Shown: one piece after another, positions 13,146-59,017 of the stretch
Position numbering within the stretch: position 1 is the first letter of the stretch
Layout: each line of letters opens with the position of its first letter
DNA from: Dermatophagoides farinae
Taxonomy: Eukaryota; Arthropoda; Arachnida; Sarcoptiformes; Pyroglyphidae
Assembly: GCF_024713945.1 (NCBI RefSeq)
Contig: NW_027461520.1
Location: 124,001 to 188,000, forward strand
Direction of reading: 5' to 3'
Length of the DNA: 64,000 bases
Made by a program: the position numbers and the translations under genes
Notes under the pieces: generated by a model
What the model saw: only the letters and a program-made list of their open reading frames with translations
Database searches by the model: none
What the model was told of the DNA's origin: nothing

Positions 13146-14797
13146 TTAATTTTTACTTTTTTTTGTGTGACTTAAATCAAAAATAGACTTATAATATTCA
13201 ATAGGCGAAAAACCGATTTTTGAATTACTATATGTAGGAAATTTTATTGAAAAGAACTTTGCACACGCAGACTGAGGTTTATTTTCGGCGCACAGGTTTT
13301 CTATCTGTAGTGTCTCCTCGTCTGGAAGCGAATAACCGTCTAAAACGTGCTTGCGTGTTACCGCATTAGAAAGTGCAAAAGGGCATCCGAAATAAGTTTT
13401 GTTGTCACTAGAAACCTAAAAATTTATTTATCGTTGTAACTTACTGTAAAATCATTAATTATTTTTGCGCAGTTGTAGCAGTTTTTTGGTTGTTTCTGGC
13501 CTTCTAAACCAAAAATATGTCGAATCGAGTACAAATGAGTTTTATCGAACTCGGCAGTGTTTCGCCAATTTTCTCTGCTAAAAGCTATTACGTCTTCTAT
13601 TTTCATTCCACAATCTTTTAAAAAGGGCCAATACAAAAGTCTGCCGCTGTATTTCAAATGTCTGTTATGTTTTAGCATATTAGTGATGTTAAACATGCAA
13701 GGAGGGAAGATACTTTGTACTTTCTGCAGATCATGATACATAAGTCGTTTGAAGTTGGCATTTGTCACGTAATTGAGCGATCTGGAAATTGAGGCTTGCG
13801 ATGATTTTATTTTTTGAAAATTTTTGATCGCGTGAGCTAAGAGCTTGAAAGCGGGTTCGTTGTCGTACAATTCTTTGGCTTTAGTTCCGTACGAACTGAC
13901 AGAAGCAGAGGAATTGTCCGTAAAAGTTATTCTTTTTAAACGGGTTTCAAAGTTTGACTTAATTATGTTAAATAAACATGCATGCCGTACATAGACAATT
14001 CCTCGATATATGATTGCTGAATTAGAACGGATACAATCACTAACTTCATTGCAAAGCGGAAAATGCAAATATGCTTGAGCGTATTCTGTGTGCAAATTGT
14101 TCTTATTGACGGGCAAGTTTGACTCTAGTATATATTCCTTGCAACTAAAAAATTTATTATTATCAACGTAGCCAAACGAAACCAAGCAAAGTCGAATAAC
14201 AAACAGTAATAGTTCTTGTTCTTTCCACCAGTTAAATAAATCATTGCTAGCCTGTGAAAAGACGAATAAAAGAACTAGAAATGACAAGTTATCTTCTTTA
14301 TAATGCTCTTTAACAAGGTTCTCGTTTCTAAAGGACGAGTCATCATTATTAATAGTGTTGGACAACGACATCCTTTTCCGTTTATTAGGCTTATCAAGAA
14401 GATAGGAATCGTAAAAAATGTTGTTTAAATTGTGACTTTCGCTCGGAGTCGTGGTGCCAGCAGTATCGTTTTGGGATATATGTATATAAGTATCAGGTTT
14501 AATACTAAACAGAAACAAGCCGTCTAATAGAAAATTTTCAAACGCTTTCCTAGCATCTTTAAACACATCTTCTCCATGATAAGACAAGTACACATTTGGA
14601 ATCAGCCTTTTCAAGTTATCTGTGTATTTTGATTCATAGATTATGTTTAAGATATTGAGTCGAGTAAAGCAAATAGTGTACAGCTTTTGTTCATTTATTT
14701 CTTTAGGAATAGGAACTTTTTCGTAAAAATTGAAAAAAACTTCAGAACCACCTAATTTATCGTATTTTCGTTCGGGTAACTGAGAAATGTAATTCAT
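13146..14797 (-). CDS. PRI2: DNA primase large subunit (PriL/PRI2), two exons
   Basis: Exon 1 is 14797-13445 and exon 2 is 13415-13146, giving 540 aa. The protein is the non-catalytic primase subunit of the polymerase alpha complex; it carries an Fe-S cluster and helps start RNA primers. Exon 1 contains FPPCMFNITNML, LKYSGRLLYWPFLKDCG and YSIRHIFGLEG, all matching the family. Without splicing the frame ends at YNDK and lacks the last two cluster cysteines. Removing the 29-nt intron adds FGCPF and SACAKFF, so the four cysteines become C367, C443, C462 and C502. The spacings of 76, 19 and 40 residues are close to those I recall for human PRIM2. Exon lengths (1353 and 270 nt) keep frame. A basic NLS-like KRKR patch lies near residue 138. 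Confidence 0.92.
13416..13444 (-). other. 29-nt spliceosomal intron in PRI2
   Basis: Donor GTAAGT and acceptor TTTTTAG bound a 29-nt insert containing in-frame TAA codons. Removing it joins two conserved primase blocks in frame. Confidence 0.9.
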
Positions 14798-14923
14798 CTG
14801 AAAAGTTCAACCGGCATTTTCATCTGATTTTCAAGCCGCTCTCTTGGTAAATTTATTATAATTTTCAAAAAATTTATTTTTAGTCTCCTTTATAAACGAA
14901 ATTATAGCTCTGAAGCAACAATT

Positions 14924-17215
14924 TTAGTAAAATAAACTTTTTGTGTACTGACGCCGATCAAGATAGAATATCCATAAAACCGTCAAAAACAGACACAGTA
15001 GCATCGCAATGACAACATTTAAAACCGATTGGCCCGGTTTGAGTATCAAAGAGATTTTCCAATAACTGGTATTTAAGTTTCCATAAAACAGCAATTCGCT
15101 GTTAGGAATAATATTTTTCCAAACAGTAATGTAAGACAGTTTTTTAATAGTACGCTTGTTTGGCTGGAGAACTTTGGAAATAAAATTCTTTGAAGTTTTT
15201 CCGAGTTCTGAATTTAGGTTCTGGCTTTTGACAAATTGTTCTACTAGAATGGGGTTAATAATGTGATACAAGCGAGAGATGAAATTGCTATTTTCTCCAA
15301 TATTGATGACTAATGGCGAAAAGATCTTTAGAGAGTAGTTGTTTGGTGAACAGTGCGTCACAATAGGCGTTATGCCACGCGATAAATAATTTGGAATTTT
15401 AACACAAACGTTGACTGGAATTATGGAATGCAAGCTAATGTTAGTTGTGTTTGCAGTGTCGATCTGGCTATTGTCAGTTGTGTTGTTTGAACGAGCGTCG
15501 TTAGCTAAATCTAGCGAAAACCCATTTTGTGGATTACCACTCCTGTATTGTATCCTGGTCAAGATCTTGATGGAAAATCCGTTAATATTGATAAACGGAA
15601 TCATGGAATAGCCAATTGAAGTGGAACAGAAAAGAAAGTATTCGTTCGATGATTCGCGGACTATACTAATTAAGTTAATACACTGATCGAATACTTTTGC
15701 TTGTTGATAGTTGAAAGACACAGAATTTGAAACTTCGGATCTAGCGATAACAGGACTGGTTCTCAATATTTGCGTAAACCATCCTATAGTATAATTTTTC
15801 AAAGACTGCATGAATTTCTTTTGGTATGCCCCGGTATTATTGTTCGGCTCTGCCTTTTCAGTAATGAACATATCTACTACAACACCTTGATTCCCTTCTA
15901 AAGTTTGCGCTGCGACAATGTCTACAACTCCGTCATTGTTAACGTCGAGCAGTGCAAATTTGTAAGTAGAAAAGTCTTTAATTGGAAAATTTGCGTTACT
16001 AACGATATGTATGTTTTTAGGATCGTATTTTACATTAACTTTTTCGCACATTTCATTGATAGGTGCGTTACTGGGTTCGAGTCTCATGATAGAAGAACTA
16101 GTTATGAATAAAATATGAGGGACTCCCGACTGGCTAAAATCATTGACAAGAATTTCTACAATGTTATTAGAGATGTAGAAAAAGTTTTCAATGTCTAATT
16201 TGCGGCTGAAAATGTTGTTTTCGTAGACAGTTTCCCAGAATTCAACGCGCAATTTATTTGTGTCAGGCATAGGTGTAACTAGTATAAGGTCGAGTAGACA
16301 GTCGTTATTATAGTCTACGACAAAAGACCATTCATTGAGTTTACGGGCTTCATCCGTGAATATTTTTTGATCTTCATCATGTAATGTGTTGTTTTTATCA
16401 GTGTCATCTTGTTGAGATAGGTTTAAGAATGAAAATTTTTCTGTAAATGTTTTTATTTTTGAATAAACGGCGCTAGCAGCAAAAGAAAACATGTTTTTAC
16501 TGTTCGTGTCTTTAGCCCTATTGTCTTGATCAGTAGTATTCTTTGCAGATGTAATAATTGGTCCGTTAACTAATTTGTTTTTAAGCTTCAAGGCTTTGTT
16601 GAAAGCATCAGACTCTGGTACGGTTAGCAATATTTTCATTTCCTCTAAATTTTTTTTAGAAGAGCTGTTGTAAGAGTAATAATCGTCTCGATGGTAGTTT
16701 TTATGTAGCCAAACAAAAAGTTCGTTGTTACGGTAATACAAAACATCTTCGAACCCATCGAAATCGATGTCTAAAATAGTCGGGGAGATTAAACAGTCAT
16801 GTATTTCACGTATCAAGGGTTCAAAGACGCCTTTCCTCAGTCTAAAAATGTCAAAGTAGCAATCGTCATTGTATAAAACAAAATAGTTGTTCAACGATTT
16901 TAATGGTACTATTTTCTCGGTTTTGCTTAAGTCTACGTCAAAGGTGTTAACCAGTATTAGTTCGTCGCTTTGGTATTCATAGACAAAAAGCTTGTTTGTT
17001 TCCGAAAATATCAGGCCGGGATCCAACGTGATATGAAATTGAAACTGCGTCTCAAACTTATGTGAAGTCGGAATTTGTTTTACCAGCGTTTCGAAATTGA
17101 TCGAATTTTCGGGATTCAATGTTCTGCCAGTTACTCCGCATGTTCCTAAGCTATTAAATATGAAAAATAAAAGTTGAACTATAAGCATAAAGATGATATC
17201 ACATTTATAGCTCAA
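14924..17215 (-). CDS. FG-GAP repeat membrane protein, ITFG1/TIP-like
   Basis: This 763-aa protein has an N-terminal signal peptide (hydrophobic residues about 7-24), a large luminal or extracellular region and one membrane segment near the C-terminus (about 728-750) followed by a short YLDRRQYTKSLFY tail. Calcium-binding FG-GAP/DxDxDG-like loops are visible: DIDFDGFEDVLY (149-160), DYNNDCLLDLILV and DVNNDGVVDIVAA. This architecture matches the T-cell immunomodulatory protein/ITFG1 family (LINKIN), which is widespread in eukaryotes including apicomplexans. A low-complexity insertion (about 200-280) separates the first two loops. Likely a secretory-pathway or plasma-membrane protein whose partner is unknown. 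A 130-nt gap separates its stop from the upstream end of the PRI2 gene. Confidence 0.8.
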   Translation of the reverse strand: MSYKCDIIFMLIVQLLFFIFNSLGTCGVTGRTLNPENSINFETLVKQIPTSHKFETQFQFHITLDPGLIFSETNKLFVYEYQSDELILVNTFDVDLSKTEKIVPLKSLNNYFVLYNDDCYFDIFRLRKGVFEPLIREIHDCLISPTILDIDFDGFEDVLYYRNNELFVWLHKNYHRDDYYSYNSSSKKNLEEMKILLTVPESDAFNKALKLKNKLVNGPIITSAKNTTDQDNRAKDTNSKNMFSFAASAVYSKIKTFTEKFSFLNLSQQDDTDKNNTLHDEDQKIFTDEARKLNEWSFVVDYNNDCLLDLILVTPMPDTNKLRVEFWETVYENNIFSRKLDIENFFYISNNIVEILVNDFSQSGVPHILFITSSSIMRLEPSNAPINEMCEKVNVKYDPKNIHIVSNANFPIKDFSTYKFALLDVNNDGVVDIVAAQTLEGNQGVVVDMFITEKAEPNNNTGAYQKKFMQSLKNYTIGWFTQILRTSPVIARSEVSNSVSFNYQQAKVFDQCINLISIVRESSNEYFLFCSTSIGYSMIPFININGFSIKILTRIQYRSGNPQNGFSLDLANDARSNNTTDNSQIDTANTTNISLHSIIPVNVCVKIPNYLSRGITPIVTHCSPNNYSLKIFSPLVINIGENSNFISRLYHIINPILVEQFVKSQNLNSELGKTSKNFISKVLQPNKRTIKKLSYITVWKNIIPNSELLFYGNLNTSYWKISLILKPGQSVLNVVIAMLLCLFLTVLWIFYLDRRQYTKSLFY

Positions 17216-17443
17216 GTGAATTGCAGTTAATTTATCTTATAACAGTTTAGGAATCTTGAACTCTTAAATTCGATTCATATCTGTTAATTTTCCGAATTTA
17301 AGTATATACACGTTATAATAAAAAATATTTTCGTAACTTACATTATTTAATGATTAAAGCTTTTTCTATAAACTGTAATTTATTAAATTCATTATTCAAC
17401 TCAGATGATCTAAAACTTCGATTTACAATATAAAAGTTAGATC

Positions 17444-18073: not shown

Positions 18074-18110
18074 GTTTCTTTCTTTTATAATATTATTTAG
18101 TTCCCGATAA

Positions 18111-23083: not shown

Positions 23084-24797
23084 TTACTTTTTTGACTCGC
23101 CGGAAATTCTCTGGATAATGTCCACAATATCTGTTAGAGAGTTTTCATTCCTGTTTGTATTCGAATTATTGGTCAAATTAGCTAGTAGTTTTGCAAACTG
23201 TAATGGTTTAATAGATTTTGGCACATCGGCTTCGTCACCTTCAGGTGATTCTTTTTTTGGAGCGTCAGTGGTTATTTTATATTCCCAACGAGCATTTCCT
23301 TCAGTGGTTTCTTCCGTTTCATTTTTTTTTATAATGCATTCACACAAGGCGTTGTTGATACCTTTCTGTGGCACAATTAACTTGTTTCTATACAAGACTA
23401 AGTCATCAGTTTCCCTAACCATAACTCCACATCTTTCTTTATCAGATTTTCCGTAATAAACGGATGTAACACAGAGGTTATCAGAGTTGCTTACGTACAC
23501 GACTCTACAACTTTCAATATCTTCGTGGTTATTCAAAAATGGATGACGTCTTTGCCAATCGTTTATTCGTGGAATACAACAAGTCATCCCCTCGCTGTGA
23601 CATATAACGGTTGGTGAAGCTAGTCCTTTAGGAGGAGCAGTCCTAACTGCTGTAGAGTTTTTTTTTCCACCTCCTCCAATGTTAACTTTTCGGTGTCCAT
23701 GCATAGTAGTTAAAGCTGATAGCTCTTTTAATGGTAGCGCATTCATCAATTGAGAACTAGTTGTCAGGATGTTACTTGCAGCTTGAATGGTTTGACCGAT
23801 ATTTAACGCAGATCCTCCACCACTTAGCAATCCACCCAAACCTGAACCGCTAAGAAGGTTTCGAAATAAACCTATATCAAGCAACTTAATGCCTTCGGCT
23901 TGTTTGAAACTCCGTAATTCTCCAGAAGGATCGCTTTCATTAGTCATTGCCGATCTGTCTTTGTTTGTAATCGCATCGTTATTCTCAGAGTCATTTTTGT
24001 CTTTTCTATCTTCTTCAGAACAATATTTAGGAGCAGTTATAGCAATTTTCGAACTTTTCAGCGTGCTAATAGATGAGTAATGATAACATAATTCTTGATC
24101 ACTTACATATGTACAGTACTCGCAACTTTTATTTTTTTGACATAATGCTTGACATGCCTGTACAGATTTTGATCTCACTACTAAATCTTCTTCACCATTG
24201 ACCTGAATAGCATTCAAATAGCAACCATCAAGTTTTATTACTGTATCATCTTTTTCTGATTTTTGCCCTTTATCTATCAATAACACCTCCTCAACTTCAG
24301 ACAACACACGTGTTGCACGATTTTGATTATTTGATTGTTCGTCAACGCCAATAAGATTAGAAATAGCAGGAAAACCACTTTGGAATAAGTTTCTTATAGT
24401 GCCCCCACCGGTTAAATTTTGTAGCCTTTTCAATAAGTCAGCTGGATTTCCTAAATTAATAGCTTCTTTTTGTTCAGCTAAACTTTGAGAAAATTTAGTA
24501 AGATCAGTGGGTTTTTTCTTATCAACACCTCTTATTTCATGATATAAAGGTATTTCTTCCACCACTTCTTCAGTTGCTACAGAATCTTGAATGTCTTTTT
24601 TAGTTGAGACATTTGATGGAGCAGAGCCATTCTTAAGCTTTGAAATACTATTGATAATCTGTGTAGAAGACGAAAACAAATCTGTAACATATATTTCAGA
24701 TATACTTACTAACGAAGCTATCTAACAAATTTGGCTCACATTGAACTAATTTAGTCGACCAAAGCAATGATAAGCTCAATCTCAACATTAATTTCAT
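23084..24797 (-). CDS. Secreted cysteine-rich protein with PAN/Apple-like domain, two exons
   Basis: Exon 1 is 24797-24710 (88 nt) and exon 2 is 24681-23084, giving 561 aa. The short first exon supplies a signal peptide (MKLMLRLSLSLLWSTKLVQC) followed by EPNLLDSF; the exon 2 frame alone has no signal. A PAN/Apple-like module lies in the first half: GCYLNAIQVNG, then ACQALCQKNKSCEYCTYV, then LCYHYSS and PKYC. A glycine-rich stretch (GSGLGGLLSGGGS) and a second Cys-containing region (HSEGMTCCIPRINDW to NALCECII) follow. Apple domains in apicomplexan micronemal proteins bind host glycans or proteins, so a surface or microneme role is possible but inferred. No transmembrane segment or GPI signal is seen at the C-terminus. 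Confidence 0.8.
24682..24709 (-). other. 28-nt intron in the PAN/Apple gene
   Basis: Donor GTAAGT, acceptor TTACAG. Splicing rebuilds an AAT codon across the junction and attaches a signal-peptide exon. Confidence 0.85.
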
Positions 24798-26835: not shown

Positions 26836-29800
26836 ATGCGGTGTAATAACAATAACCGCTCAGATTGTTCTAGAAATAACCTTAGGGATCGGCAAAATAT
26901 TCTTGAAAAATACAAACAAAACAGACAAGAGCCAGTATTATTGAGTGCCAAATATATCACAACATTATCTGCTTGTAATTGCGACGAACAAAATATATTG
27001 AATTATGATCAGCGTAAATGTCCATATGAGAATTGCAAATATAATAAGCAGTTTGCTACTGCGGAAGCACAAGAATCAGAGAAACAAAAAAAAAATTTAG
27101 TCACCCAGAAAATAAAACTTCCTTTAGTCGAGGTTACTGATAATCTTTATAAAATTGACTGTTTATCTCATCATTTGTGGAATAATACAAAAAGAATTGC
27201 ACAAGATATAAAACTTTCCAATGATGACGTGTCAACACAAACGATAGTAGAAGATGGCATAACTAAACCCACAGACGAGGAAATTGAAGAAGGATTAAAA
27301 TATTTGTTAAGTTCAGGTGACTTATTTAATCACGAAAATGACAGTGACATTTTTAAAGATGCGCACTTTTCCGATTTTGATACTGATAATGAAAAATCAA
27401 ATTATGATAACGCTGAAAAAAATAAATCATGCCACGAATCTGAAATCATTAAAAATGACGAAACGCAAACAAAACAAAAATATGAACCATTAAACGACGA
27501 GTTTGAAAAATATAAAAATATTTCCCATCACAGCACGGTAGCTAAAAATCTTCCATACAAATGGAAAACCGAACTACAACGCAAAAATTTATCTCGTTCT
27601 AATTCTAGGGTTCTTTCTGACGAGCAGGTCGAGGAATTAGAAAAAAAACTTTTAGAACGTCGAAAACAGCGTGAAAATTCAAAAAAAGATAAATTCGCCT
27701 ATAAAAAATTGTTTTCACAATCCAAGTTATTTGAAAATAAGCAGCGCTATGAAAATGCATTTAAGAACATTATAGATAGCCCAGATTCGTCTTGCCAAGT
27801 TATCAATCCTCCGAAAAAAATCGATAAGACTTTAATTAGTAAACTTTCAGGAGAATTTGATGTTAAGAAAACAGATACGCACAGATTTAGTTCAAATTTA
27901 ACTAATACCAATGAATCTAGCGATATTTTGAACCATGCTAGCGTATCATCGATAAGTTACGAAAATCTTTTACAGCTTTCATCAAAAGAACCTTTTTCAA
28001 CTATGAATATTTTAGAAAATCAGGGTTCATTTGAACAGTGTAATAAAACTATAAATCATTTGTTAAATCGATTAAATTCAAAATCTGAAGAAGCTAAAAA
28101 AAATACACAAAGTGACAAAACTTCGCTTCCTATTGGTTTCGTAAAACCTGATGTGGATAAAATTTTCAAAAATGAGAACGTTAACAAAACTGCAAATCTC
28201 TCTACTGCAAAAAAGAATATTCTTAATATGGTATGTTCACCAAAAATTATGAGTACAACAAATGCGAAAATTATAAACAAAGGTCATAAGCCTAGTTCAA
28301 TGGCAGAAAAATTAGACAATTTTAAACAATCTAGTGAGCCAATCGACCAAAAAAAAAATTCAGTATCAACTGAGGCTAACATAAATGAAATCGACGAAGG
28401 TAAGTAAAATATAAAAATAACTATAAACAGTTAAATTATCATAACCTACTTCTTGATACTTATCGCAATTTATTTATAGATTTAAATAATCAAGCAAAAT
28501 CAACGAACAAGTATTATAGCGTACATACTAATTATCACCCATATTTTAAACGTAACAAATTTCATGTTAGCAGCAAAATAGACGGTCACAATGCTAATTC
28601 TGCTTTAGGAGTTGAAACAAAAAATTATCAAACATTTAAGTCAGGAAATAATGTTCATCAATGTAAATCAAACATTAGTCCTGTAGTAAAACTTACCTTT
28701 AACGCTAAGAAATCAAAAACATCGACAAAATTAAGAAAATTAGAATTTTCAAGACATGATACTGATAATAACAACAAGAATGAAAATTCAACTACGCGTG
28801 CTACATCTAATATTGGTTGTCCTGAGTCCATGAACAAAAGTAAAAAGTTAACAAATCCCACCAATGATAAAAATTCTGAGATACATATTGTGAAAGTCAA
28901 GCCAAAGACTTTTACAAAAAAAGTATATAACATCAAAATTGATCAGCCTATAATTTCAGCTGCAAAGGATAAACAAATCTTAACTGTTTCTTCTAATTTA
29001 AAACATAAACCAACGTTAGTTACTTCAAACAGAAAACTTTTAAACTTATTAACGCCCTGCGAACAATTAAAATCATCGACCATAAATGATAGTGTTTTAT
29101 CTTTACACACTCACCAACAATTAACTAATAATATGACTAAATTTCCTATTACAGAAAATACAAAAAATGATTTTAAAACTTGTGAGCATTTAAAGAAAAA
29201 TTCATTACACGAACCGGAAGAAGCACCAAGAAGGAAACAAAAGAAAAATTTTAATCTAAAAAAAAAAAACTTGTATGAAACTCAACCGGTCCATGATCAC
29301 TGTAATAAGCACATTAAATTTAGAAATAGTTACTCTATATCTATTACTGAAGCAGTTCCTGTTGCATCACAAACCGCTTCTATTGAAACAGCTGAAGAAA
29401 GCAAATCTAATGACGAACTACCGATAGATTTAATAAAGAAACTGTTTTCGACAAGGTATTTGAATAATATTAATAAATTTAACTCGGTTAAATACCCACT
29501 TTTGAGTTTAGAAGAGAAGCATTTATTAACAAAATTTCTGGATAAAGGAACTAAAAAATGTAAATCCATCGGAGAAAGACTATTAGATTTGAAAAAGCAA
29601 CATTCTTTGTCAAAGAGTCTCTATAAAGAGATTAGAAAATCAAAATTAATTAAAAAATTACTATTAGGTTTGGAAAAAGAACATTCTTTATCAAAGAATC
29701 TAGATGATATAGCTGATAAATCCGAAGTTTTTAAAAAACCACTCGTAAGTCTAGAAGGGCAGTATTTCTTAAAAAAATGTTCCGATGAAATAATTAAAAA

Positions 29801-45203: not shown

Positions 45204-45255
45204 TGCAAATGTTTATTCAATTTTCGATAAATAAGACGCTGCGCAATAAAAAAAA

Positions 45256-47127
45256 TTATGGCGGTAAAACAAAAATTAGATCATTTCCACTATAAAGTTC
45301 TTCTAGTTTATTGTCATTGTTGCGTTTATTTAGTTGTAAATAGAGAAACCTACTTCTGATTTCTCTCGATCTTAGTAGAATTCTTATATTTGCGAAAGTT
45401 AACATGTTAATGTAGAATTTGCAAAAGATAAAGGTTAAAACAATCCCGACATAAACAGAATTGCTTGTAAATAATATACCTATCAATAAAAGTATTGCTT
45501 TCCAAATTATAATATAGTTCACCTTAACGAGATATGCGTCTATGAAGCAAGACACAAGAAAATTAAACTTACTAGTATTGTAAGTTTTGTCACTGTCGCA
45601 TGGAACAAAGAAGTTTGCAACACTTCTGGGTAGGCTAATTTCATGTGCGATCTCAGCGTATATTTTTGCTCTAGCAAAATAATCTACTTTTTTTGAATAT
45701 ATGTGTAACGTTAATTGAAATAATAAGATTGTTAGATTATAGATCTGCAATACGACAAAAAAGTAATAGAAGTAAAGCCAGAAAGAGAACGCATAAAAAT
45801 CGTATTGATAATCTAGATAAAATTGTATTAAAAGAGAAATCATATTATCGATGGCGATAATGAAAACTTCTATGACTGAACTACTACATCTTCCTACTAA
45901 TACAATGGTGAATATGTAAGACAAAGCGAACTGACTTGCAACAATTAAAGTCCTGTTTTTTTTACACCATAGTTTTTCTCTTCCATAAAAATAACAAGCC
46001 AGCGATACAACATTAAGTAACTTCAAAATTAAAACCAACATTGCACAAGATATGAACTGTAAATGCATGTTTAGTAAAAAACAAGAGTCCTTTGTTTTGA
46101 TCTGTGCTTGATGGGACAGTTTCTTAAAAAAAGTTGGACATTCCTTTACAAGTAACGTATAGTACTGGCGCAAAGAAATAACTTTTTTGCGTTTTCGTTC
46201 ATGCGTCTTTCGGTTTTTTTCACGAAGCCTTTTTTTTTTCTTCCGTTTAAAATAAAAATAAAAACTTTGCAGCTCAATGATGATCATGATCGCATTTTTG
46301 ACCAACATATAAAACTTACCTTCAAAGGATTGATTAATGTAGACTGAATAGGCTCGAAATATAAGCTGTGGTAAGTCGATGGTCAGGAAAGATACGAGGA
46401 AAAACATGTTGTTAAAACTAAAATACATATTTTCCGTTGGAAAAGAAAAAGCAAGTAAGTAAACACCAAAGCTTGCGCCGACTCCATTAGTTATAAAAAA
46501 AAATGATGGAGTAAATGAACGGAATTGGTTTTCTTTGAAATTAAGAAATGCCAGCATTAAATCATATACCTGAAACGTCGTAAGAATGATTAAATCGATG
46601 TAAGAACATAGGTTAATAACTTCATTAGAGATGTTATAGTGCCAAAGCGTTTTATTCTTGGAATTGCTCACTTCGCCATTTTTGTTTCTATTTCGATTTA
46701 TCAACGAAATATTAGTACGATTTAAATGGTTTTTCACGAACAGTTGATGTACGAATGGGAAAGATAAACAAAGGTAAATTCCGCAAACTGCAAATGACAA
46801 GCTTTTCCAATTCAAAATAACATTCTGGAATAATTCGTCATAAATTAGCGTGATAGGTTGATTTATAAGCTCAGTGTAATAAATTATTTCTTGGCGTAGT
46901 AATGTGAACCAGCAAAAAAAACTCCATACAAATGCTCTCCCTTTAATAGAACGATCAATAAATAAAAAAAATGCCAGTAAAAAAACGAAAATTTGGTCGA
47001 GCAAAGAGAAAAAGAGACTATATTGTGTCCACTTATTCAGAATGATGTTGCTTAGAGTAACACTGACTGAGTACGCCAAATATAAAAATACAGCATCAAA
47101 CAGTGTATGAATTATTTTATTGAACAT
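45256..47127 (-). CDS. Polytopic membrane protein, unknown family
   Basis: The 623-aa product is dominated by Phe/Tyr/Ile/Leu-rich hydrophobic segments, roughly ten to twelve likely transmembrane helices. A strongly basic loop interrupts them near residues 294-317 (KRKKKKRLREKNRKTHERKR). The N-terminus itself is hydrophobic and may be the first helix. The C-terminal tail is hydrophilic (RNNDNKLEELYSGND) and ends IFVLPP. I see no transporter signature or conserved charged residues within helices, so function is unknown. It lies head-to-tail with the secreted beta-solenoid gene (52-nt gap) and the V-ATPase d gene, all on the minus strand. Confidence 0.75.
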   Translation of the reverse strand: MFNKIIHTLFDAVFLYLAYSVSVTLSNIILNKWTQYSLFFSLLDQIFVFLLAFFLFIDRSIKGRAFVWSFFCWFTLLRQEIIYYTELINQPITLIYDELFQNVILNWKSLSFAVCGIYLCLSFPFVHQLFVKNHLNRTNISLINRNRNKNGEVSNSKNKTLWHYNISNEVINLCSYIDLIILTTFQVYDLMLAFLNFKENQFRSFTPSFFFITNGVGASFGVYLLAFSFPTENMYFSFNNMFFLVSFLTIDLPQLIFRAYSVYINQSFEGKFYMLVKNAIMIIIELQSFYFYFKRKKKKRLREKNRKTHERKRKKVISLRQYYTLLVKECPTFFKKLSHQAQIKTKDSCFLLNMHLQFISCAMLVLILKLLNVVSLACYFYGREKLWCKKNRTLIVASQFALSYIFTIVLVGRCSSSVIEVFIIAIDNMISLLIQFYLDYQYDFYAFSFWLYFYYFFVVLQIYNLTILLFQLTLHIYSKKVDYFARAKIYAEIAHEISLPRSVANFFVPCDSDKTYNTSKFNFLVSCFIDAYLVKVNYIIIWKAILLLIGILFTSNSVYVGIVLTFIFCKFYINMLTFANIRILLRSREIRSRFLYLQLNKRNNDNKLEELYSGNDLIFVLPP

Positions 47128-47254: not shown

Positions 47255-48413
47255 TTATTCTTCAGGAATGGGAATAATGTATTTGGCTATCTTTTCTTTA
47301 TTGTTTATTAATACCTAAAAAATGACTGGATGATATACTTACCATTTCAGCAGCCCAGAGAATGTTTCTAGATTCTTGTTCTCTTATGCGCTTGTACGCG
47401 TGAAAAATACCAAAGTTCATTTGGTAAGAAAACGCCTCGTCATAAACGTTGAGCATGTTTTTGTACATGATATCTTCAAACGAGTAGTTCGCACTGTTAT
47501 TATTTTTTTTGTTTTGGTACTGAGCACAACCGGCTAAAAACGCTTCTTTATATTCAGGGTATGTCGTGAGCAATTTGGGGAGCATGGAGTCGATGTGGAA
47601 CTTTCTTGCTTCGTTGGTTATATCTGGGTACAAATAGCCGAAATTAGCAAAGAGCTGTTCTCGTCGAGAGATGTCGTTCTTATTTGTTCCGTGTAAGGTG
47701 TTGAGCGTCACATTAAGCAAAAGGTAATCGGCTTCTTTCTTCAGCACATCTGACAAATATTGCCGTGTCGTAGCTTGAGCACCGTTTGAGTTTAAAGAAC
47801 AGACAAAATTATAATAATCTTCAAGCCAAAATCGAATTAAGCAAACTCTCATTAGTTCAAAATCAATTTGATCCAATGTGAAGTTCAATTCAGAATTTCC
47901 GTCTCGTAGGAGTTCTAAATATCGTTCAAAATACGGGCCAACAGGTGTGTCAAAAAGCACTATGCGAAATAGCTCTGTCAGCTCTCCGTTGAAATGTAAA
48001 AGCAGTTCTAGATCGTTGTTCCATCCCAGCGGATCTAGCATGTTGATGACATCTGGTTTAGAACGTTCTTCGACAGAAAATTGCAACAACAGAATGATAT
48101 TGTCAATAATTGACTCGTACGACAGATAGTCGATGAATTTGTGAGCCAGTGGACTGGCGTAGCGATAAAAAAGCTTATAATCTTCTGCTAAAGCCCGTTT
48201 AAACTGTATGACAAAAGATTTGATATCGGTGAATTTTTGTTCGTCTTCGAAATATTTTTCGTAAACTGTGTCATCTAGACATGCAATTATGTCGTCTAAA
48301 CGTTCACATTCTTGAAATTTTTTATAAGTGTCTTTCTTTAGTAGTTTTGAATAAAACCCTCGCAAAAAAGCGTCTAATTGGCCATTTTCTCGGTTGTAGC
48401 AAAGCAAATCCAT
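47255..48413 (-). CDS. VMA6: V-type proton ATPase subunit d (V0), two exons
   Basis: Exon 1 is 48413-47343 and exon 2 is 47314-47255, giving 376 aa. Subunit d (Vma6/ATP6V0D) couples the proteolipid ring to the central stalk of the V-ATPase that acidifies vacuolar compartments. The N-terminal NRENGQLDAFLRGF, CERLDDIIACL, YESIIDNIILLLQ and LVDTP-like LFDTPVGPYFERYL blocks match the family. So does YPEYKEAFLAG and, near the C-terminus, NFGIFHAYKRIREQESRNILWAAEM. Splicing out 28 nt adds VLINNKEKIAKYIIPIPEE, restoring the family tail (IxxYIPIP); the unspliced frame ends in unrelated sequence. The start is the ATG at 48413; an upstream TTG is not needed. Confidence 0.93.
47315..47342 (-). other. 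28-nt intron in V-ATPase d
   Basis: Donor GTAAGT, acceptor TTTTTTAG. Splicing falls between codons and restores the conserved C-terminal tail. Confidence 0.9.
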
Positions 48414-48627: not shown

Positions 48628-49262
48628 TTAAGTTTTGTTTGCGTCGCTATCTAGCGAACTGTAATAACCTTTTATTTTATAACCATAGATTTTAGGTTCG
48701 TGTTTTTTGAGCGGAGCGTCTACGTTAAGTTGAGAATATTTTTGTAAAATTTTTAAATGTATTCCAGGACCGAAAAAAGACTCGTCGATTTGGGGCGACA
48801 GAGAATTGGAAGTGTTCTTAACCTTGTTTATTTTTTCAGATCGAGAGTACGACTGTTTACACCAAGGACAGTAAAGTCGGAGTCTAGACCGCTCGTTGTT
48901 GTTCTCTTTGCAATACGGCAAAACGGTGGTTTTGTCGCACAAAACTCGAGGGCAATAACCGAATTCGCCATCCAAAACTTTTTGACAAAGCTCATCTAAG
49001 CCTTCGTTTTGCACATAATATTGATGTATAAACATATATGCTTGTAGTAGTGACCGAATTACCGTTTTTGAATAAGGTGGAGACATCGTCAGCAACATGT
49101 TTACAATTTTTTCAATGTCAGGAATTTTCTGAAATCAATAGGGTGGCAAGAACTTACTTGTTGCAACTCAGTATTTTCGACAGCTGACTTGATAAATTCA
49201 TTTGGAACTTCTAGTAAAAGATTTGATATTGAACAGATATATTTAGCAAACTTTGCCGTCAT
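48628..49262 (-). CDS. CSNK2B: Casein kinase 2 beta (regulatory subunit), two exons
   Basis: Exon 1 is 49262-49158 and exon 2 is 49128-48628, giving 201 aa. CK2 beta dimerises through a zinc ribbon and directs the catalytic alpha subunit to substrates. The family features are VPNEFI (family EVDEDYI), AYMFIHQYYVQNEGLDEL and the GEFGYCPRVLC box. The second Cys pair is LYCPWC; FFGPGIHLKIL and PKIYGYKIKGYY follow. Exon 1 supplies the N-terminal helix region that the single ORF lacks. Sequence just upstream of the ATG (TTTATTTTAG|GG) resembles another acceptor, so a further short 5' exon is possible, although the present start already gives a normal N-terminus. The usual acidic loop is not evident. 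Confidence 0.92.
49129..49157 (-). other. 29-nt intron in CK2 beta
   Basis: Donor GTAAGT, acceptor GATTTCAG. It splits the gene after codon 35; joining gives a continuous CK2 beta N-terminal domain. Confidence 0.88.
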
Positions 49263-53043: not shown

Positions 53044-54281
53044 ATGGATATTACAAAAAAGATTGTACCTCGTTTCACTAAATGTGACATTAAAGTTATT
53101 GACCCAACACTTGACAAATATTATTACATTGTATGTTTATTTAGACTATTATAAAATTTTGTAGCTGGAACTGATTTCAAATGCTTTAAGAGAATTGAAT
53201 TTTTTCACTCCTATTCCAATCAAATACCAACGCTTAAATTCCAAAAAAAACGGAATATTAAGTAAATTTAATTTTGATGTGTGTAAAAAATATGCAGAAG
53301 ATGATGCATCAGAAATTAAGACAGCTACCAAACGTTATCTGGTTTTTTACACTGCTATTGTTGAAGCAATAAATTTGCACATAAAAGCGTTAGATTCGTA
53401 CAAAAATGACGAAAAAGAATATCATAGTTCAATCTTACAAATTTTATCGCAACAGCTTTCAGAATTGAGTATGTTTTACGATGAATACACTATTTTTAAA
53501 CTTAATGCGCAAACTGCTCCTGATTTGTTAAAAACGAAATCTATCAATAAGATCAACTCGGTATTTGAACAATTATCATGTGACAAGCCTGAATGGAAAC
53601 CATTAATTTGTGATCTTGTAGAAAAAAAAATCGAAAAATTGATCGAACCAAATAGTCAGTGCGATGAAACAATAATAACTGATATTTATAATTTATATTA
53701 TAAAATAGATAAATTCGATTTTAATAAAGATGCAGATAACGATGAATTTACGTTAAAACACCCACCCCTAGTTATTTCTACTAAAACTCGTAAAAATATC
53801 AATTTGATGTATCACAATACGGAGAATTTCGAATGTTCAAAAGAAGAAAAAATAAATGCTTTAAATAATAAATTTGGTAAAGCGATGATCAATATGCAGA
53901 GTAAAAATCGCGAATCAGAGTTAATTGAGTAAGTACTATAAGCGAGTAAAATATACTATGAAAAATAGACTTAAATTTCATGTTTCTTCAGGGAGATTGA
54001 TCAAAAACTTGAACAAATATCTGTTATTACAACAAAAATTTTAACTGAAGTTCAACTGCAAAAAGAAAAAACTGAGAATAGTAAGTTCAAAATTCAAAAA
54101 ACCGTGCTTAGTATTAGTTTCAACTGAACTATCGACGCAACATTTGAAAAAAGCTAATCAAGATTTGGACAAAGCAATAAAATCAAAGGTTTCCACAGTA
54201 ATAATATTAAGTTATTTTTACTTATTACTTGGAATAATGTTAATTGTTGTAGATTTAAGTAAACTCAAAAGCTGGTATTAA
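53044..54281 (+). CDS. STX18: Syntaxin-18/Ufe1-like ER SNARE, four exons
   Basis: Exons 53044-53130, 53165-53928, 53992-54080 and 54112-54281 join in frame to give 369 aa. The N-terminus MDITKKIVPRFTKC resembles the syntaxin-18 start (VDIT..F), followed by a helical N-terminal domain. The SNARE motif (about 283-340) contains KLEQISVITTKILTEVQLQK and TELSTQHLKKANQDLDKAIK, with a Gln at the expected central layer. A single C-terminal membrane anchor follows (about 343-361), ending DLSKLKSWY. Syntaxin 18/Ufe1 is the Qa-SNARE for retrograde Golgi-to-ER fusion. The SNARE and anchor lie in exons 3-4, which are outside any long ORF. A Qc SNARE such as Use1 is the main alternative. Confidence 0.75.
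53131..53164 (+). other. 34-nt intron 1 of the syntaxin-18-like gene
   Basis: Donor GTATGT, acceptor TTTGTAG. Splicing between codons joins an ATG exon of 29 codons to the long exon 2. Confidence 0.75.
53929..53991 (+). other. 63-nt intron 2 of the syntaxin-18-like gene
   Basis: Donor GTAAGT, acceptor TTCTTCAG. A closer AG near 53968 does not keep the SNARE frame; this one does. Confidence 0.8.
54081..54111 (+). other. 31-nt intron 3 of the syntaxin-18-like gene
   Basis: Donor GTAAGT, acceptor GCTTAG. Splicing rebuilds an ATA codon and continues the SNARE helix into the membrane anchor. Confidence 0.8.
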
Positions 54282-54320
54282 ATATCATCATTTTTGAGAC
54301 AATGTTTATGGCATTAAGGT

Positions 54321-54346
54321 ATAATAATTGTTAACACAATTATTAT
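54321..54346. repeat. Inverted repeat, 10-bp stem, 6-nt loop
   Basis: ATAATAATTG (54321-54330), loop TTAACA, CAATTATTAT (54337-54346). It lies 40 nt after the SNARE gene stop. Confidence 0.65.
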
Positions 54347-54369
54347 ATTAAAAAATAATTACAAATATT

Positions 54370-54387
54370 GGGACGTAATTACGTCCC
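54370..54387. repeat. 18-bp perfect palindrome
   Basis: GGGACGTAATTACGTCCC is its own reverse complement. It sits in very AT-rich sequence, so the GC-containing arms are unlikely to be composition-driven. A dimeric protein-binding site is possible; no known factor is claimed. Confidence 0.7.
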
Positions 54388-54647
54388 TTAATTTACAATT
54401 AATAAGTCAAAATCATTGTATATTAAGAAACTTAATAGCATTAATCTACTACGACTAATTTCTAGCACATATCGTCAGGTTTTCCGAGGCTAATTATCAT
54501 TGTTGGATTTTAGCTTGACTGCATTATTAATGTGTTGTAATTAATTTTTACTGTGTTGAAATAGTTAGAAAGCGACAAACGACATTCGAAAATAAATCTT
54601 ACAATAAACTTAAGTTAGAAGTAATTAAGTAGTTTTTTTAATTTATT

Positions 54648-55853
54648 ATGTACTCAAATGACCGGAGACAAGCAATAAAACAAGATTTAATGGTGGAAGA
54701 TTTGAATGTGCACCAAAATGGATGTATGGACCAAAGCAGTGATGGAATGAGAGATTATTATCACAATTCGAATTTTATCGAAGGAAATATGCAGAAAATG
54801 GATCCAATGATGGGTAAAAATAACACTTATTATCAACCTCATCCTAAGCAAGGTTACGATTCGTCCATTGAACTCGCTGAACAGCCGGTCAATGTATATT
54901 GTCAAAAATTCATACACGAGCCAGCATATAAGATGAATGCCCCAATACCTAACTATTATAAAAGTGATTATCCGAACAGAATGGAAATGCAATACCGTAT
55001 GACTGCTTCGTCGACCAATCAATTATTTAGGTCGACACCAATAGAGAAGTGCAATAACAGGTATTACAATGAACATCAAGCGAATATGGTTAAAAACATT
55101 TATCCACCTGTAAAGGTACGCGAAATGATGGAAAAAGCATTTATGAATAACTTCGGCAACGGAGCGCATTCCAAAAACGTGAGAATGGTTCCTAACACGT
55201 GTGACAATATGCAGTACTCGACTGAAATAAAATACGATCAATTAAATGAACATCAATCACAACAACCAAAAATGTCATACTCACCAATGAATCAAATGAT
55301 GCAGATGAACAGTGCTGAGCAAGGTTCATACATGGTAAATATGCAAAGTCCAAAGTCAATTCATATGAATAAGCACCAAAACATGTCTGTGATGAGAGGC
55401 ATTCCTTCAAACGTATCAATTAGCCCGGAAAGCGTACCGTCCTACATGCACAGAAAGCCCATGCCAATGCATTATAAGAGTGAGTCACAGTTTGTTCAAG
55501 CTTCAACTGCAAATAAAATGAACCAATTCAACGTAGTTCCAAATCAACTAAATCAATATACTAATGTCCCTATGGATATGCAACAACCCCTTCAATCTGA
55601 TTATATGATCAATACAAATCAAATCCCCATAAGAAATATTGGTAAGCACACATACTACAACAATAATACATATAATTACGAAAATTCCTCTGTCGTTAAT
55701 AAACCAGATGTCTCAAAAACTAAACCAATGCAACCTTTTATCACTTTACTCACTCCTTCTAGTAAAAAAGATATTCCTAATGCACAAACTGCTGTAAATA
55801 CCTCAGCCATAGATTTCTACAATACAATTAAAAAGTTTATGGTACAAAGTTAA
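54648..55853 (+). CDS. Met/Asn/Gln/Tyr-rich low-complexity protein
   Basis: I do not recognise this 401-aa protein. It is rich in Met, Asn, Gln, Tyr and Ser throughout (for example MNQMMQMNSAEQ and NQLNQYTNVPMDM), a composition typical of prion-like, condensate-forming proteins. There is no signal peptide, membrane segment or cysteine pattern. Short hydrophobic or basic segments (VKVREMMEKAFMNNF near residue 155, and the C-terminal AIDFYNTIKKFMVQS) may be the only folded or binding pieces. It could be a transcriptional or RNA-granule regulator; that is speculation. The start ATG at 54648 follows a stop-rich leader. Confidence 0.6.
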   Translation: MYSNDRRQAIKQDLMVEDLNVHQNGCMDQSSDGMRDYYHNSNFIEGNMQKMDPMMGKNNTYYQPHPKQGYDSSIELAEQPVNVYCQKFIHEPAYKMNAPIPNYYKSDYPNRMEMQYRMTASSTNQLFRSTPIEKCNNRYYNEHQANMVKNIYPPVKVREMMEKAFMNNFGNGAHSKNVRMVPNTCDNMQYSTEIKYDQLNEHQSQQPKMSYSPMNQMMQMNSAEQGSYMVNMQSPKSIHMNKHQNMSVMRGIPSNVSISPESVPSYMHRKPMPMHYKSESQFVQASTANKMNQFNVVPNQLNQYTNVPMDMQQPLQSDYMINTNQIPIRNIGKHTYYNNNTYNYENSSVVNKPDVSKTKPMQPFITLLTPSSKKDIPNAQTAVNTSAIDFYNTIKKFMVQS

Positions 55854-56144
55854 ATAATTTGATTCTGTAAAATATATAACTAAACAAAATATCAACTCGA
55901 TTAATCAAAATGTATCGGAAATGAAAACAGAAAAATAAATCACTATATAACGAAGTAGTTCTTATTCATTCAGAAGAAACCTTTCTTGAAGGAATGTAAA
56001 ACAGACGGAAAATAAATAATTTTAAATTAACGATTTATCTTAAATATAACGTTATTTGAAACTCTCATAAAAGATACTTTTGTAAATTTCGTTTACTTTA
56101 AAAATAAGCTAAATAAGTTACTATTTGAAGCATAATAATTTATA

Positions 56145-59017
56145 ATGCTAGACTCGTATCAACCAGATATTATTGAACGTAAGTTTTGTCTAAAGATAAC
56201 GTGTTAGCAAAATGGATATCAACCTGGGAAAAGTCGGGCGTTCAGTTCGGTTCGAACAAAGAAGATGACAAAAGACCAACATTTTCTATGGTTATGCCTC
56301 CTCCGAACATCACGGGGCACCTTCACTTAGGTCATACTTTAATGATAGCAATTGAGGATTTGCTAACTAGATATAAACGAATGAAAGGTTTCAACGTCTG
56401 TTGGGTTCCAGGTACTGATCATGCCGGAATTGCTACTCAATCAGTGGTCGAACGTAATTTGGCGAAACAAGGAATCAGTAAGCATGAATTGGGCCGTGAG
56501 CAATTTATCGAAAAAGTTTGGGATTGGAAAAACCAAAAAGGCCAAGTCATTTTAGACCAGCTGCGTAGGCTTGGCTCTTCCTGTGATTGGTCTCGAAAAG
56601 CCTTCACTTTATCTCCCGCTTTGTCAAAAGCAGTAGTAAAGGCTTTTATTGAACTGTATAACAAAAAATTAATATATCGCGATAAGCGATTAGTGTTTTG
56701 GTCGCCATATTTGAATACTGCCTTGAGTGATATTGAAGTAGATTCTCTGGAGCTTTCCGAACCAAGAAAAATTTTTATTCCAGGTTATTCGAGACAAGTT
56801 GAAGTTGGTTATTTGTGGACTTTTTACTACGCTGTAGAAAACTCGGAGGAAAAAATTCCTATTTCAACCACGCGTCCAGAAACAATGTTAGGGGATGTTG
56901 CAGTTGCTGTAAACCCTACTGACAAAAGATATAAGCATTTGGTAGGACGTAGGTTGATTCATCCTTTTATTTCTAATCGAAAAATGATTGTTGTCGCAGA
57001 CAATCATTGTGATGTTGACTTCGGGACTGGAGCAGTTAAAATCACACCGGCACATGACAAAAACGATTATGAAATAGCTTGCAGACACAATTTAGAAATT
57101 ATCAACATTTTTACCACTGATGGAAAAATGAATTCCAATTGTGGAGAGTTCTGTGGAATGCATAGATTCGAAGCTCGATATATGGTTGAAAAACGCCTAA
57201 CGGAACTCGGTCTTTTTATAGAAAAAACAAAAAATCCGAAAAAAATGGTTGTTCCCATTTGCAGTCGTTCTGGAGATATAATTGAACCTCTTCTGATTCC
57301 TCAATGGTATGTTAACTGCAAGGACATGGCGGAGCGAGCAATACAAACCGTAAAATCTTCGGAACTGAAAATTTATCCAGCATCTGGAGAGAAACAATGG
57401 AATCATTGGCTTTCAAACATTAAGGACTGGTGCATCAGCAGACAGCTTTGGTGGGGTCATCAAATTCCTGCTTATCGTGTAACTGAATCTTTGAAAGGAA
57501 ATAAACAGTGCGATTTTGAAAACGAGCAATGGGTCGTTGCTGAGTCTTTCGATGAAGCTTTAAAGCAAGCCAAAAAAAAATACGGTGAAAACATCGTTAT
57601 TGAACGCGATAGCGATGTTCTCGATACGTGGTTTTCTTCAGGTTTGTTCCCTTTCAGCGTTTTTGGATGGCCAAATGAGACTGCAGATCTAAAGAAATTT
57701 TTCCCAACTGACGTTCTGGAAACTGGAAGTGACATTCTCTTTTTCTGGGTTGCAAGAATGGTTATGCTTTCTTTAGAACTCACAGACAAGTTACCTTTCC
57801 ACATAATTTTATTGCATCCTATTGTGCGTGATGCTCATGGCCGGAAAATGTCGAAGTCTCTTGGAAATATAATTGACCCAGTGGACGTTATAAACGGTAT
57901 TTCTCTCGATAAACTTATTGATAATATCAAGTCAGGAAATGTCAGAGAGTCTGAAATGAAGCAAGCTATTCAAGCCGTTAAGAAAGAGTATCCAAAAGGC
58001 ATCATGCAGTGCGGTTCTGATGCGTTACGCTTCTGCCTCCTCAGTTATTTACGAGCAGGAAAAGATATAAACTTAGACGTTAATCGAATTGTAGGTTACC
58101 GTCACTTCTGCAACAAGATATGGCAAGCTGCGAAATTTGTTTTGTCCATTGGAAAAAAACAAGATTTCAGTTTGTCAAACAACGAAATTTTGATTCCGCT
58201 TCAAAAACTTCGTCCGTTCGACAAGTGGATTTTGAGTCATCTGATGAAGTTAATATCTACTGTGGAGCAGAGTATAGAAGAATTCGACTTTTACAGCGCT
58301 GTTTCGAGCATTTACTCGTTTTTCTTAAGCAAATTCTGCGACGTTTACATCGAATACTCCAAGCATTCTCAAAAACAGTCATTTCCAATCTTGTTCAACG
58401 TTTTGGAAATGTTTATTAGACTCAGCCATCCATTTTTACCTTTTGTAACTGAGGAAATATGGCAGTCGCTCTACCACGACTTAAACATCGCAAGCCCATT
58501 CAAATTACTTATCTCCAGCGACTTCCCCATATCGAACGACCAGTTGAAGTTCGATGTAGACGACGAAATTAATCTTGTTATTGACGCTCAGTCCGGTTTT
58601 AGATCTTTCATCAGCAAATTCGAGTTTACAACAACGTCAGAGCTTGTCTCATACATAGTTGGCGATTCGCTTATGCCATACTCTGAATACATCCAAAAGT
58701 CAGTCAGACTAGGTGACGTCATTTTCGTTAAACAGCTTCCGGCAAATGTAATTAACTACATTACTCCTGCTGGAAGGATTATTGGTATACAATACAACGC
58801 TAACATGGATTTACTCAAAGTTAAGGTGAAATCTGTCAAGCGCCAGGAACTTCTCGAAAGCTTAATAAAAAAGATTCAAGATAAGATGCAATCTCCGCAA
58901 TATTCTGAAAAGGTACCAATCGCTGTTCAAGAATCAAATAGCGAAAATTTGACAAACTATAAATCCGAACAAAAAGAATTAGAAAAGACTATTGAAATTA
59001 TAAATTCATTTTTATAA
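56145..59017 (+). CDS. VARS: Valyl-tRNA synthetase, two exons
   Basis: Exon 1 (56145-56178) and exon 2 (56208-59017) join to give 947 aa. The class I enzyme charges tRNA-Val. Splicing yields the start MLDSYQPDIIEPKWISTWEK, matching the family opening (YxPxxVExKWxxxWE); the unspliced frame lacks it. The HIGH motif is HLGH in PPPNITGHLHLGHTL (42-56), and the KMSKS motif is at 558-562. Editing-domain blocks (ISTTRPETMLGDVAVAVNP, DFGTGAVKITPAHDKNDYE) are present for removing mischarged threonine. FLPFVTEEIWQ-type anticodon-binding sequence and a C-terminal helical arm complete the protein. No targeting peptide is seen, so a cytosolic enzyme is likely. Confidence 0.96.
56179..56207 (+). other. 29-nt intron in the ValRS gene
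   Basis: Donor GTAAGT, acceptor GTGTTAG. It rebuilds a CCA (Pro) codon and links the 11-codon first exon to the conserved KW tryptophan. Confidence 0.92.

What the first reader, a model, noticed from the sequence alone, without database searches (positions are those of the whole stretch)
13416..56207. A class of 28-34-nt spliceosomal introns in conserved genes
Seven junctions were rebuilt by eye at 13416-13444 (29 nt), 24682-24709 (28), 47315-47342 (28), 49129-49157 (29), 53131-53164 (34), 54081-54111 (31) and 56179-56207 (29). Six of seven have GTAAGT donors and short pyrimidine-containing acceptors. Each restores a family-conserved end, a signal peptide or the SNARE frame. Longer introns of 63 and 80 nt coexist, giving two size classes. 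Tiny introns are known in few eukaryotes (heterotrichous ciliates, nucleomorphs, and as I recall Porospora gregarines and Babesia microti). They imply steric adaptation of the spliceosome.
Basis: partly seen in the sequence, partly recalled or inferred. Interest (0 to 1): 0.72.

Follow-up and report, generated by a model that had tools for sequence, protein, structure and literature searches.

The report
Tiny 28-letter introns in mite parasite
The window comes from an apicomplexan parasite whose DNA sits inside a dust-mite-sized genome assembly, and most of the introns detected on its contig are only about 25-34 bases long, close to the small introns already reported from one marine gregarine.

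Summary
All seven junctions are at the stated coordinates and lengths, six GTAAGT and one GTATGT. On the whole 319,858-base contig the GTAAGT-to-YAG spacing peaks at 28 nt: 41 at 27-29 nt against about 13 expected. A home-made gene finder with no preferred intron length finds 61 introns of 25-34 nt against 11 with decoy signals, and includes 7 of 7 junctions, one of them with very weak support. Splicing completes the Pfam domains of primase large subunit, V-ATPase d and CK2-beta; two further tiny introns lie inside a Kelch-phosphatase catalytic domain. The same signature is on C11, C12, C14-C16, and flat in length on C1-C9.

Corrected: the host is an apicomplexan cobiont inside a 62.4 Mb assembly that matches published Dermatophagoides farinae; longer introns form a thin tail, not a visible second mode; and 28-nt introns are already reported as the main class in Porospora (PMC9250747). 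Its strongly conserved adenine near the acceptor is absent here. Best reading: ordinary GT-AG introns shrunk towards a minimum and recognised by intron definition. No transcript evidence was available.

The parts
13416..13444 (-). 29-nt intron in DNA primase large subunit gene (about 13146-14797, - strand)
   Evidence: GTAAGT..TAG; Pfam DNA_primase_lrg goes from profile 9-194 (110.3 bits) unspliced to 9-266/266 (143.1 bits) spliced; PDB primase chains align past the junction into YFGCPF with a 2-residue gap near it; retained reading stops after 6 codons; gain 7.9 nats
24682..24709 (-). 28-nt intron candidate before the PAN-domain gene (ORF 23084-24679)
   Evidence: GTAAGT..CAG; gene finder at the lax penalty only, gain only 0.3 nats; the protein was not tested joined
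47315..47342 (-). 28-nt intron in V-ATPase subunit d gene (about 47255-48413, - strand)
   Evidence: Pfam vATP-synt_AC39 3-327/339 (158.6 bits) to 3-339/339 (162.0 bits) after splicing; ungapped PDB alignment across the junction; gain 2.9 nats
49129..49157 (-). 29-nt intron in casein kinase II beta gene (about 48628-49262, - strand)
   Evidence: Pfam CK_II_beta 61-182 (90.9 bits) to 12-182 (111.6 bits) after splicing; ungapped over the junction against CK2-beta chains; gain 7.2 nats
53131..53164 (+). 34-nt intron, GTATGT donor, in a SNARE-like (syntaxin-18-like, recalled) gene, about 53044-54281
   Evidence: gain 2.8 nats; no Pfam family at E 0.001
53929..53991 (+). 63-nt intron of the same SNARE-like gene (longer tail)
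   Evidence: GTAAGT..CAG, gain 7.1 nats
54081..54111 (+). 31-nt intron of the same SNARE-like gene
   Evidence: gain 3.0 nats
56179..56207 (+). 29-nt intron in valyl-tRNA synthetase gene (about 56145-59017)
   Evidence: gain 4.8 nats; the spliced model has an ATG start where the unspliced ORF begins with TTG; retained reading stops after 9 codons; Pfam does not decide
28400..28479 (+). 80-nt candidate intron, with a 31-nt alternative ending at 28430
   Evidence: gain 4.9 nats, 31-nt alternative seen; uncertain

Best explanation
The window is nuclear DNA of an apicomplexan (perhaps a gregarine or a close relative; not tested by a tree) co-sequenced with a mite. Its genes carry few introns, and most of those detected on this contig are GT-AG spliceosomal introns of 25-34 nt (median 28-29), with a thin tail of longer ones. 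Proposed mechanism: the spliceosome recognises the whole intron as one unit (intron definition). Shown: a strong donor, mostly GTAAGT followed by T; an A-rich segment about 9-14 nt before the intron end; and T in about two thirds of introns at each of positions -4 to -6, then TAG or CAG. Inferred: U1 pairs with the donor, the branch adenosine is one of the A-rich positions and is not fixed, and the narrow spread of length reflects the shortest donor-to-branch and branch-to-acceptor distances that a mostly conventional spliceosome tolerates.
For: Sequence at 7 of 7 junctions. Contig-wide spacing peak at 28 nt. Length-agnostic gene finder against decoys: 61 against 11 at 25-34 nt; with gain of at least 3 nats 37 against 1. 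Of 53 tiny introns with gain of at least 1 nat: 35 GTAAGT, 9 GTATGT; 41 TAG, 11 CAG, 1 AAG. Domain completion in three window genes; in 7 of the 8 spliced proteins that match Pfam at least one tiny-intron junction lies inside the matched stretch (ValRS is the exception); two introns inside the phosphatase domain of a Kelch phosphatase, one directly before VFGDIHGQ, aligned without a gap at either junction to BSU1. Other contigs: the motif at 26-30 nt spacing has, among 100 listed hits of 126, 41 on C1-C9 with flat lengths (9, 7, 8, 6, 11) and 59 on C11-C17 peaking at 28-29 (1, 8, 23, 18, 9), 53 of the 59 with GTAAGTT against 8 of 41; the same motif at 41-45 nt gives 29 on C1-C10 and 9 on C11-C22 (recounted). 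Apicomplexan: CDPK nearest to Cryptosporidium and Toxoplasma CDPKs, 6PGL-G6PD fusion, DHFR-TS fusion, AP2 domains on C11 (weak), C14, C16 and C19 only (organism names of PDB chains and the lineage meaning of the fusions are recalled).
Against: No transcript was seen, so removal from RNA is inferred. U6 and U2 searches found genes only on C3, C10 and C6, so no spliceosomal RNA is assigned to the cobiont, though only 48 of 7910 and 46 of 3769 candidates were scored. No branch motif was found; the highest A frequency at one position is 60%. One of the seven junctions has a gain of only 0.3 nats and two are just under 3. The tool's own control for the pattern searches, the pattern read backwards, has more hits over the whole assembly than the pattern itself (182 + 185 against 73 + 53; 197 + 229 against 19 + 19); it differs in word content and is not split by contig, so I rely on the contrast between contigs and spacings. 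The gene finder is home-made and not trained on transcripts, and some of its models appear to merge neighbouring genes. Gregarine placement is not tested; the chaperonin search does not place the organism.
Confidence: 0.9

Rival explanations
1. The interruptions are sequencing or assembly indels, or programmed frameshifts, mistaken for introns.
For: The matching published assembly is long-read based and no RNA was available.
Against: The breaks carry GT..AG ends at a preferred spacing; decoy signals give 1 against 37 at gain of at least 3 nats; extra segments of 25-34 nt are not the few-base errors expected of long reads (recalled).
Confidence: 0.03
2. Two distinct size classes of introns coexist (tiny, and about 60 nt and more).
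For: Of 14 candidates of 35-160 nt with gain of at least 3 nats, 10 have an exact GTAAGT (35, 40, 41, 43, 45, 49, 57, 63, 80, 157 nt), against 1 of 12 decoys.
Against: Bins of 40 nt and more are at decoy level at penalties -3 and -6; at -9 the 40-59 bin is 7 against 3. With gain of at least 3 nats, 60-160 nt has 6 real against 10 decoy. The ten spread from 35 to 157 nt without a mode.
Confidence: 0.18
3. The tiny introns belong to the mite genome itself.
For: The contig lies in the mite-sized assembly.
Against: Apicomplexan gene content; AP2 hits only on C11, C14, C16 and C19; the spacing peak is on C11-C17 and flat on C1-C9.
Confidence: 0.03
4. The class is the same inherited feature as in Porospora, i.e. 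an ancestral gregarine trait.
For: Same mode (28), a similar range (25-30 there, 25-34 here) and a similar share (71-72% there; 37 of the 52 candidates up to 160 nt with gain of at least 3 nats here). Gregarine 18S was once amplified from Caparinia, a scab mite (PMC6321676, passage), so gregarines do occur in mites.
Against: No strongly conserved adenine near the acceptor here: at most 60% A at any position from -4 to -20. Gregarina niphandrodes has a median of 95 and a mode of 37. Relationship untested.
Confidence: 0.35

Closest known systems
Small introns of Porospora cf. gigantea (gregarine; PMC9250747, passages seen)
   Same: Apicomplexan; mode 28 nt; compact, gene-dense genome
   Different: There a strongly conserved adenine 6 bp upstream of the acceptor; here an A-rich stretch without a fixed position. 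GC 54% there, about 33% on this contig
Babesia microti small introns (as mentioned in PMC9250747; original not read)
   Same: Apicomplexan, tiny introns
   Different: About 20 bp there, 28 here
Paramecium and Nyctotherus introns of about 25 bp (start of the abstract of PMC5014332)
   Same: Ultra-short introns in one narrow range
   Different: Ciliates; only ultra-short introns there, a thin tail of longer ones here
Stentor coeruleus 15-16-nt introns (PMC9505925, abstract and passages)
   Same: Tiny, A+U-rich, no strong branch consensus
   Different: About half the length; branch A nearly fixed at position 10 or 11; Isy1 N-terminus reported non-conserved, whereas a C18 Isy1 match here starts at profile position 1

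Membership tests
U2-type GT-AG spliceosomal intron | GT donor and AG acceptor ends | tested here: met
   7 of 7 window junctions; the 53 supported tiny introns all start GT and end AG, but the finder allows no other ends
U2-type GT-AG spliceosomal intron | Removal restores a conserved reading frame | tested here: met
   Three window genes by Pfam, plus a Kelch phosphatase
U2-type GT-AG spliceosomal intron | Removal from RNA | not testable with these tools
   No transcript data
U2-type GT-AG spliceosomal intron | snRNAs encoded by the same organism | tested here: inconclusive
   U6 on C3 and C10, U2 on C6 only; only part of the candidates scored
Porospora-type small introns | Length mode 28 nt, about 25-30 nt | tested here: met
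   Mode 28; median 28 (37 introns with gain of at least 3 nats, range 25-33) or 29 (53 with gain of at least 1 nat, range 25-34)
Porospora-type small introns | Strongly conserved adenine 6 bp upstream of the acceptor | tested here: not met
   A 9% at -6, 34% at -7, 36% at -8, 45% at -9, at most 60% (at -12) anywhere from -4 to -20
Porospora-type small introns | Host organism a gregarine | not tested
   No tree; no rRNA obtained for the cobiont (unanswered; one search hits only C1, C4, C5, C8)
Apicomplexa | Lineage gene set (CDPK, AP2, fused DHFR-TS, fused 6PGL-G6PD) | tested here: met
   the lineage meaning is recalled; AP2 also rang in 1 of 14 control genomes

The most novel reading that the evidence does not exclude
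Most introns of this apicomplexan belong to one 25-34-nt class without a fixed branch adenosine, so the spliceosome selects them by a strong donor plus a length ruler and A-then-U composition; and this small-intron state arose in a mite-associated lineage independently of the fixed-adenine type of Porospora.
Probability: 0.28. Interest if true: 0.62.

Novelty: new member of a known kind. Interest (0 to 1): 0.45.

Why it matters
It adds a further apicomplexan with introns peaking at 28 nt, with a different signal layout from Porospora, so the question of what sets the lower size limit of introns can be compared between relatives. Gene predictors with a larger minimum intron would break many of its genes (inference). 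It also shows that a dust-mite-sized assembly contains several contigs of an apicomplexan, which matters for mite annotation and allergen work.

Tried and rejected
Fixed branch motif: k-mer enrichment in 53 introns gave only A runs and AACG (9 introns against 2.0 expected, z 5.3, many words tested); no motif claimed. Other donors: no hexamer except GTAAGT had a clear excess (GTATGT z 2.4, seventh in rank). An eighth tiny intron called in the window, 45540-45572 (33 nt, gain 1.1), lies in a frame that stays open without it and is doubted. snRNAs of the cobiont: not found. Cwc25 N-terminal domain (Cir_N): hits only on C8 and C1, none on C11-C22; with 37 positions this is a weak negative and is not used. 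Window Rfam and tRNA scans were empty. The first pattern search (81 + 81 hits, reversed-pattern control 1545 + 1565) mixed mite and cobiont and was not used. The tblastn of ValRS against plasmids and the chaperonin search were uninformative. Pfam gave nothing for the SNARE-like protein and for the N-terminal part of the g278012 protein. Literature: 10 searches. Those aimed at an apicomplexan or gregarine with Dermatophagoides or a mite genome: searches list none; one search lists 3 papers, whose gregarine passages I saw (of PMC8595220 only the first 300,000 characters are held): none reports one in Dermatophagoides, one reports a gregarine 18S from the mite Caparinia; one search holds 58 papers with 2 of 3 terms, and none of the 10 listed has the word apicomplexan. 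In the held text of two D. farinae genome papers the word apicomplexa has 0 occurrences. Most subscription papers are not in that library.
Full report
What was checked. The seven junctions were read directly. All have the stated ends and lengths; those at 13416, 24682, 47315 and 49129 lie on the - strand, the others on the + strand. Six start GTAAGT, one GTATGT; five end TAG and two CAG.

Where the window lies. It is positions 124001-188000 of contig C17 (319,858 nt) of a 62,435,336-base assembly with 22 contigs. That size agrees with the published D. farinae assembly of 62.43 Mb with 10 pseudochromosomes (abstract and passages of PMC11074847); that this is the same assembly is my inference. 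The paper says that microbial sequence was removed by BLAST against microbial RefSeq, and the word apicomplexa does not occur in its held text. The window itself encodes a 6PGL-G6PD fusion, a CDPK and a PAN-domain protein; the best PDB matches of the CDPK are Cryptosporidium and Toxoplasma CDPKs (organism names recalled); C17 also has a DHFR-TS fusion. AP2 domains occur in 4 places, on C19, C16, C14 and (below the cut-off) C11, none on C1-C10 (1 of 14 control genomes also rang). So C17 and several of C11-C22 most likely belong to an apicomplexan cobiont.

Is there a class? On C17, both strands, 187 GTAAGT sites were paired with every YAG at 12-149 nt: 10, 20 and 11 at 27, 28 and 29 nt and 10, 9 and 7 at 31-33, against a mean of 4.5 per length at 40-149 nt. 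Of all 256 GTNNNN hexamers GTAAGT has by far the largest excess at 26-33 nt (z 6.9; next 3.0). The excess is mainly with TAG (16 at 28 nt against 2.6), weak with CAG (4 against 1.9) and absent with AAG and GAG.

Gene-finder test. A Viterbi model with phase-specific coding statistics trained on 115 long ORFs, a weak generic donor profile and no preferred intron length was run on both strands. At intron penalty -3 it placed 61 introns of 25-34 nt against 11 with complemented decoy signals; at -6, 38 against 4; at -9, 19 against 4. With true donors and decoy acceptors the figure at -6 is 2, and with decoy donors and true acceptors 6. In the bins of 40 nt and more real and decoy counts are similar at -3 and -6 (at -6: 40-59 nt 11 against 8; 60-99 nt 6 against 6; 100-199 nt 13 against 10; 200-999 nt 12 against 22); at -9 the 40-59 bin is 7 against 3. 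Per-intron gains were computed for introns up to 160 nt (131 real and 92 decoy): with gain of at least 3 nats, 37 real against 1 decoy at 25-34 nt, 8 against 2 at 35-59, 6 against 10 at 60-160, and 1 real below 25. Donor quality separates the longer ones better: 10 of the 14 real candidates of 35-160 nt have an exact GTAAGT, 1 of the 12 decoys has the equivalent exact motif. So a tail of longer introns (35-63 nt, and perhaps 80 and 157) is likely real, without a second mode.

Homology. Unspliced against spliced Pfam matches: primase large subunit 9-194 at 110.3 bits to 9-266 of 266 at 143.1; V-ATPase d 3-327 at 158.6 to 3-339 of 339 at 162.0; CK2-beta 61-182 at 90.9 to 12-182 at 111.6. The two best PDB alignments seen for each run over the junction without a gap in CK2-beta and V-ATPase d, and with a 2-residue gap near it in primase (the V-ATPase piece had two mistyped residues at its N end). 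Elsewhere on C17 a Kelch-phosphatase gene (198574-200997) has introns of 28 and 29 nt inside the catalytic domain, the first directly before VFGDIHGQ; the spliced catalytic part matches BSU1 at 304.9 bits with no gap at either junction, and retained readings end after 12 and 19 codons. Of 10 spliced models or model parts scanned, out of 18 printed, 8 had a Pfam match and 2 had none; in 7 of the 8 at least one tiny-intron junction lies inside the matched stretch (primase, V-ATPase d, CK2-beta, Kelch phosphatase, DHFR, an actin-family protein, a protein matching RPN2_N); of these seven only the three window genes were also scanned unspliced. ValRS is not decided by Pfam.

Spread over the assembly. 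The motif GTAWGTT-N13..17-TTTTAG has 126 hits, of which 100 are listed: 41 on C1-C9 and 59 on C11, C12 and C14-C17; the 26 unlisted ones should lie after C17:232869 if the listing order holds. Lengths 26, 27, 28, 29, 30 number 9, 7, 8, 6, 11 on C1-C9 and 1, 8, 23, 18, 9 on C11-C17; GTAAGTT makes 8 of 41 and 53 of 59. With N28..32 there are 38 hits, all listed: 29 on C1-C10 and 9 on C11-C22. The tool's reversed-pattern controls are larger than the pattern counts in both searches (182 + 185 and 197 + 229) and are not split by contig; my inference rests on contig and spacing contrasts. C10 and C13 have no listed hit; the origin of C13 is open.

Anatomy. Of 53 introns (25-34 nt, gain of at least 1 nat) 35 have GTAAGT, 9 GTATGT; 41 TAG, 11 CAG, 1 AAG. 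Positions -4 to -6 are 66-72% T; A is 43-60% at -9 to -14 with a maximum of 60% at -12; A is only 9% at -6 and 34% at -7. Position 7 of the intron is T in 67% of the 61 introns, and the exon side shows no strong consensus (G at -1 is 28%). 51 of 53 would break the frame if retained, but the gene finder selects for that. Of the 37 introns with gain of at least 3 nats, 31 are in the stricter gene models: 12 in the first 15% of the coding sequence, 14 in the middle, 5 in the last 15%; 26 of 158 model genes carry one, and 79% of the contig is coding in that model.

How it most likely works. Intron definition by a near-conventional spliceosome, with a strong donor and a short A-then-U 3' part, is the simplest reading. 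Isy1, which in Stentor has a non-conserved N-terminus (passages of PMC9505925), has a match from profile position 1 on C18 besides the one on C3; that C18 belongs to the cobiont is inferred. Branch position, U1 pairing and the length ruler are inferred.

What is known. Porospora cf. gigantea: median and mode 28 nt, 71-72% of introns at about 25-30 bp, strongly conserved adenine 6 bp upstream of the acceptor (passages of PMC9250747). The same paper mentions 20-bp introns in Babesia microti. Paramecium and Nyctotherus have only introns of about 25 bp (start of the abstract of PMC5014332). So tiny introns, and even the 28-nt mode in an apicomplexan, are known; this is a new member with a different signal layout. 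A gregarine 18S sequence from the mite Caparinia is mentioned in PMC6321676 (passage), so a gregarine in a mite would not be odd.

Limits. No RNA, no tree, no snRNA or rRNA of the cobiont, and the sequence of the other cobiont contigs could not be fetched.

Noticed in passing
Contigs C11-C22 of the assembly (C17 holds the window): Several contigs of a mite-sized assembly carry apicomplexan genes or the tiny-intron signature (AP2: C11, C14, C16, C19; introns: C11, C12, C14-C17); a cobiont genome not mentioned in the passages seen of the matching paper seems to be deposited with the mite.
   Followed up: partly
window 8159-10399, - strand: 6-phosphogluconolactonase fused to glucose-6-phosphate dehydrogenase in one ORF.
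   Followed up: no
window 23084-24679, - strand: PAN-domain protein gene next to a tiny intron candidate; looks like a secreted protein of the micronemal type (recalled resemblance).
   Followed up: no
window 45540-45572, - strand: 33-nt intron candidate inside an ORF that stays open without it; doubtful.
   Followed up: partly
C17:198574-200997, + strand: Kelch-repeat phosphatase of the plant BSU1 (PPKL) type with two tiny introns in its catalytic domain.
   Followed up: yes
C17, 31 supported introns: Tiny introns lean to the 5' part of genes: 12 of 31 in the first 15% of the coding sequence.
   Followed up: no
C8 and C1 (Cir_N hits), C11-C22 (none): The Cwc25 N-terminal domain was found only on C8 and C1; possible loss or divergence in the cobiont, or a missed short match.
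   Followed up: no
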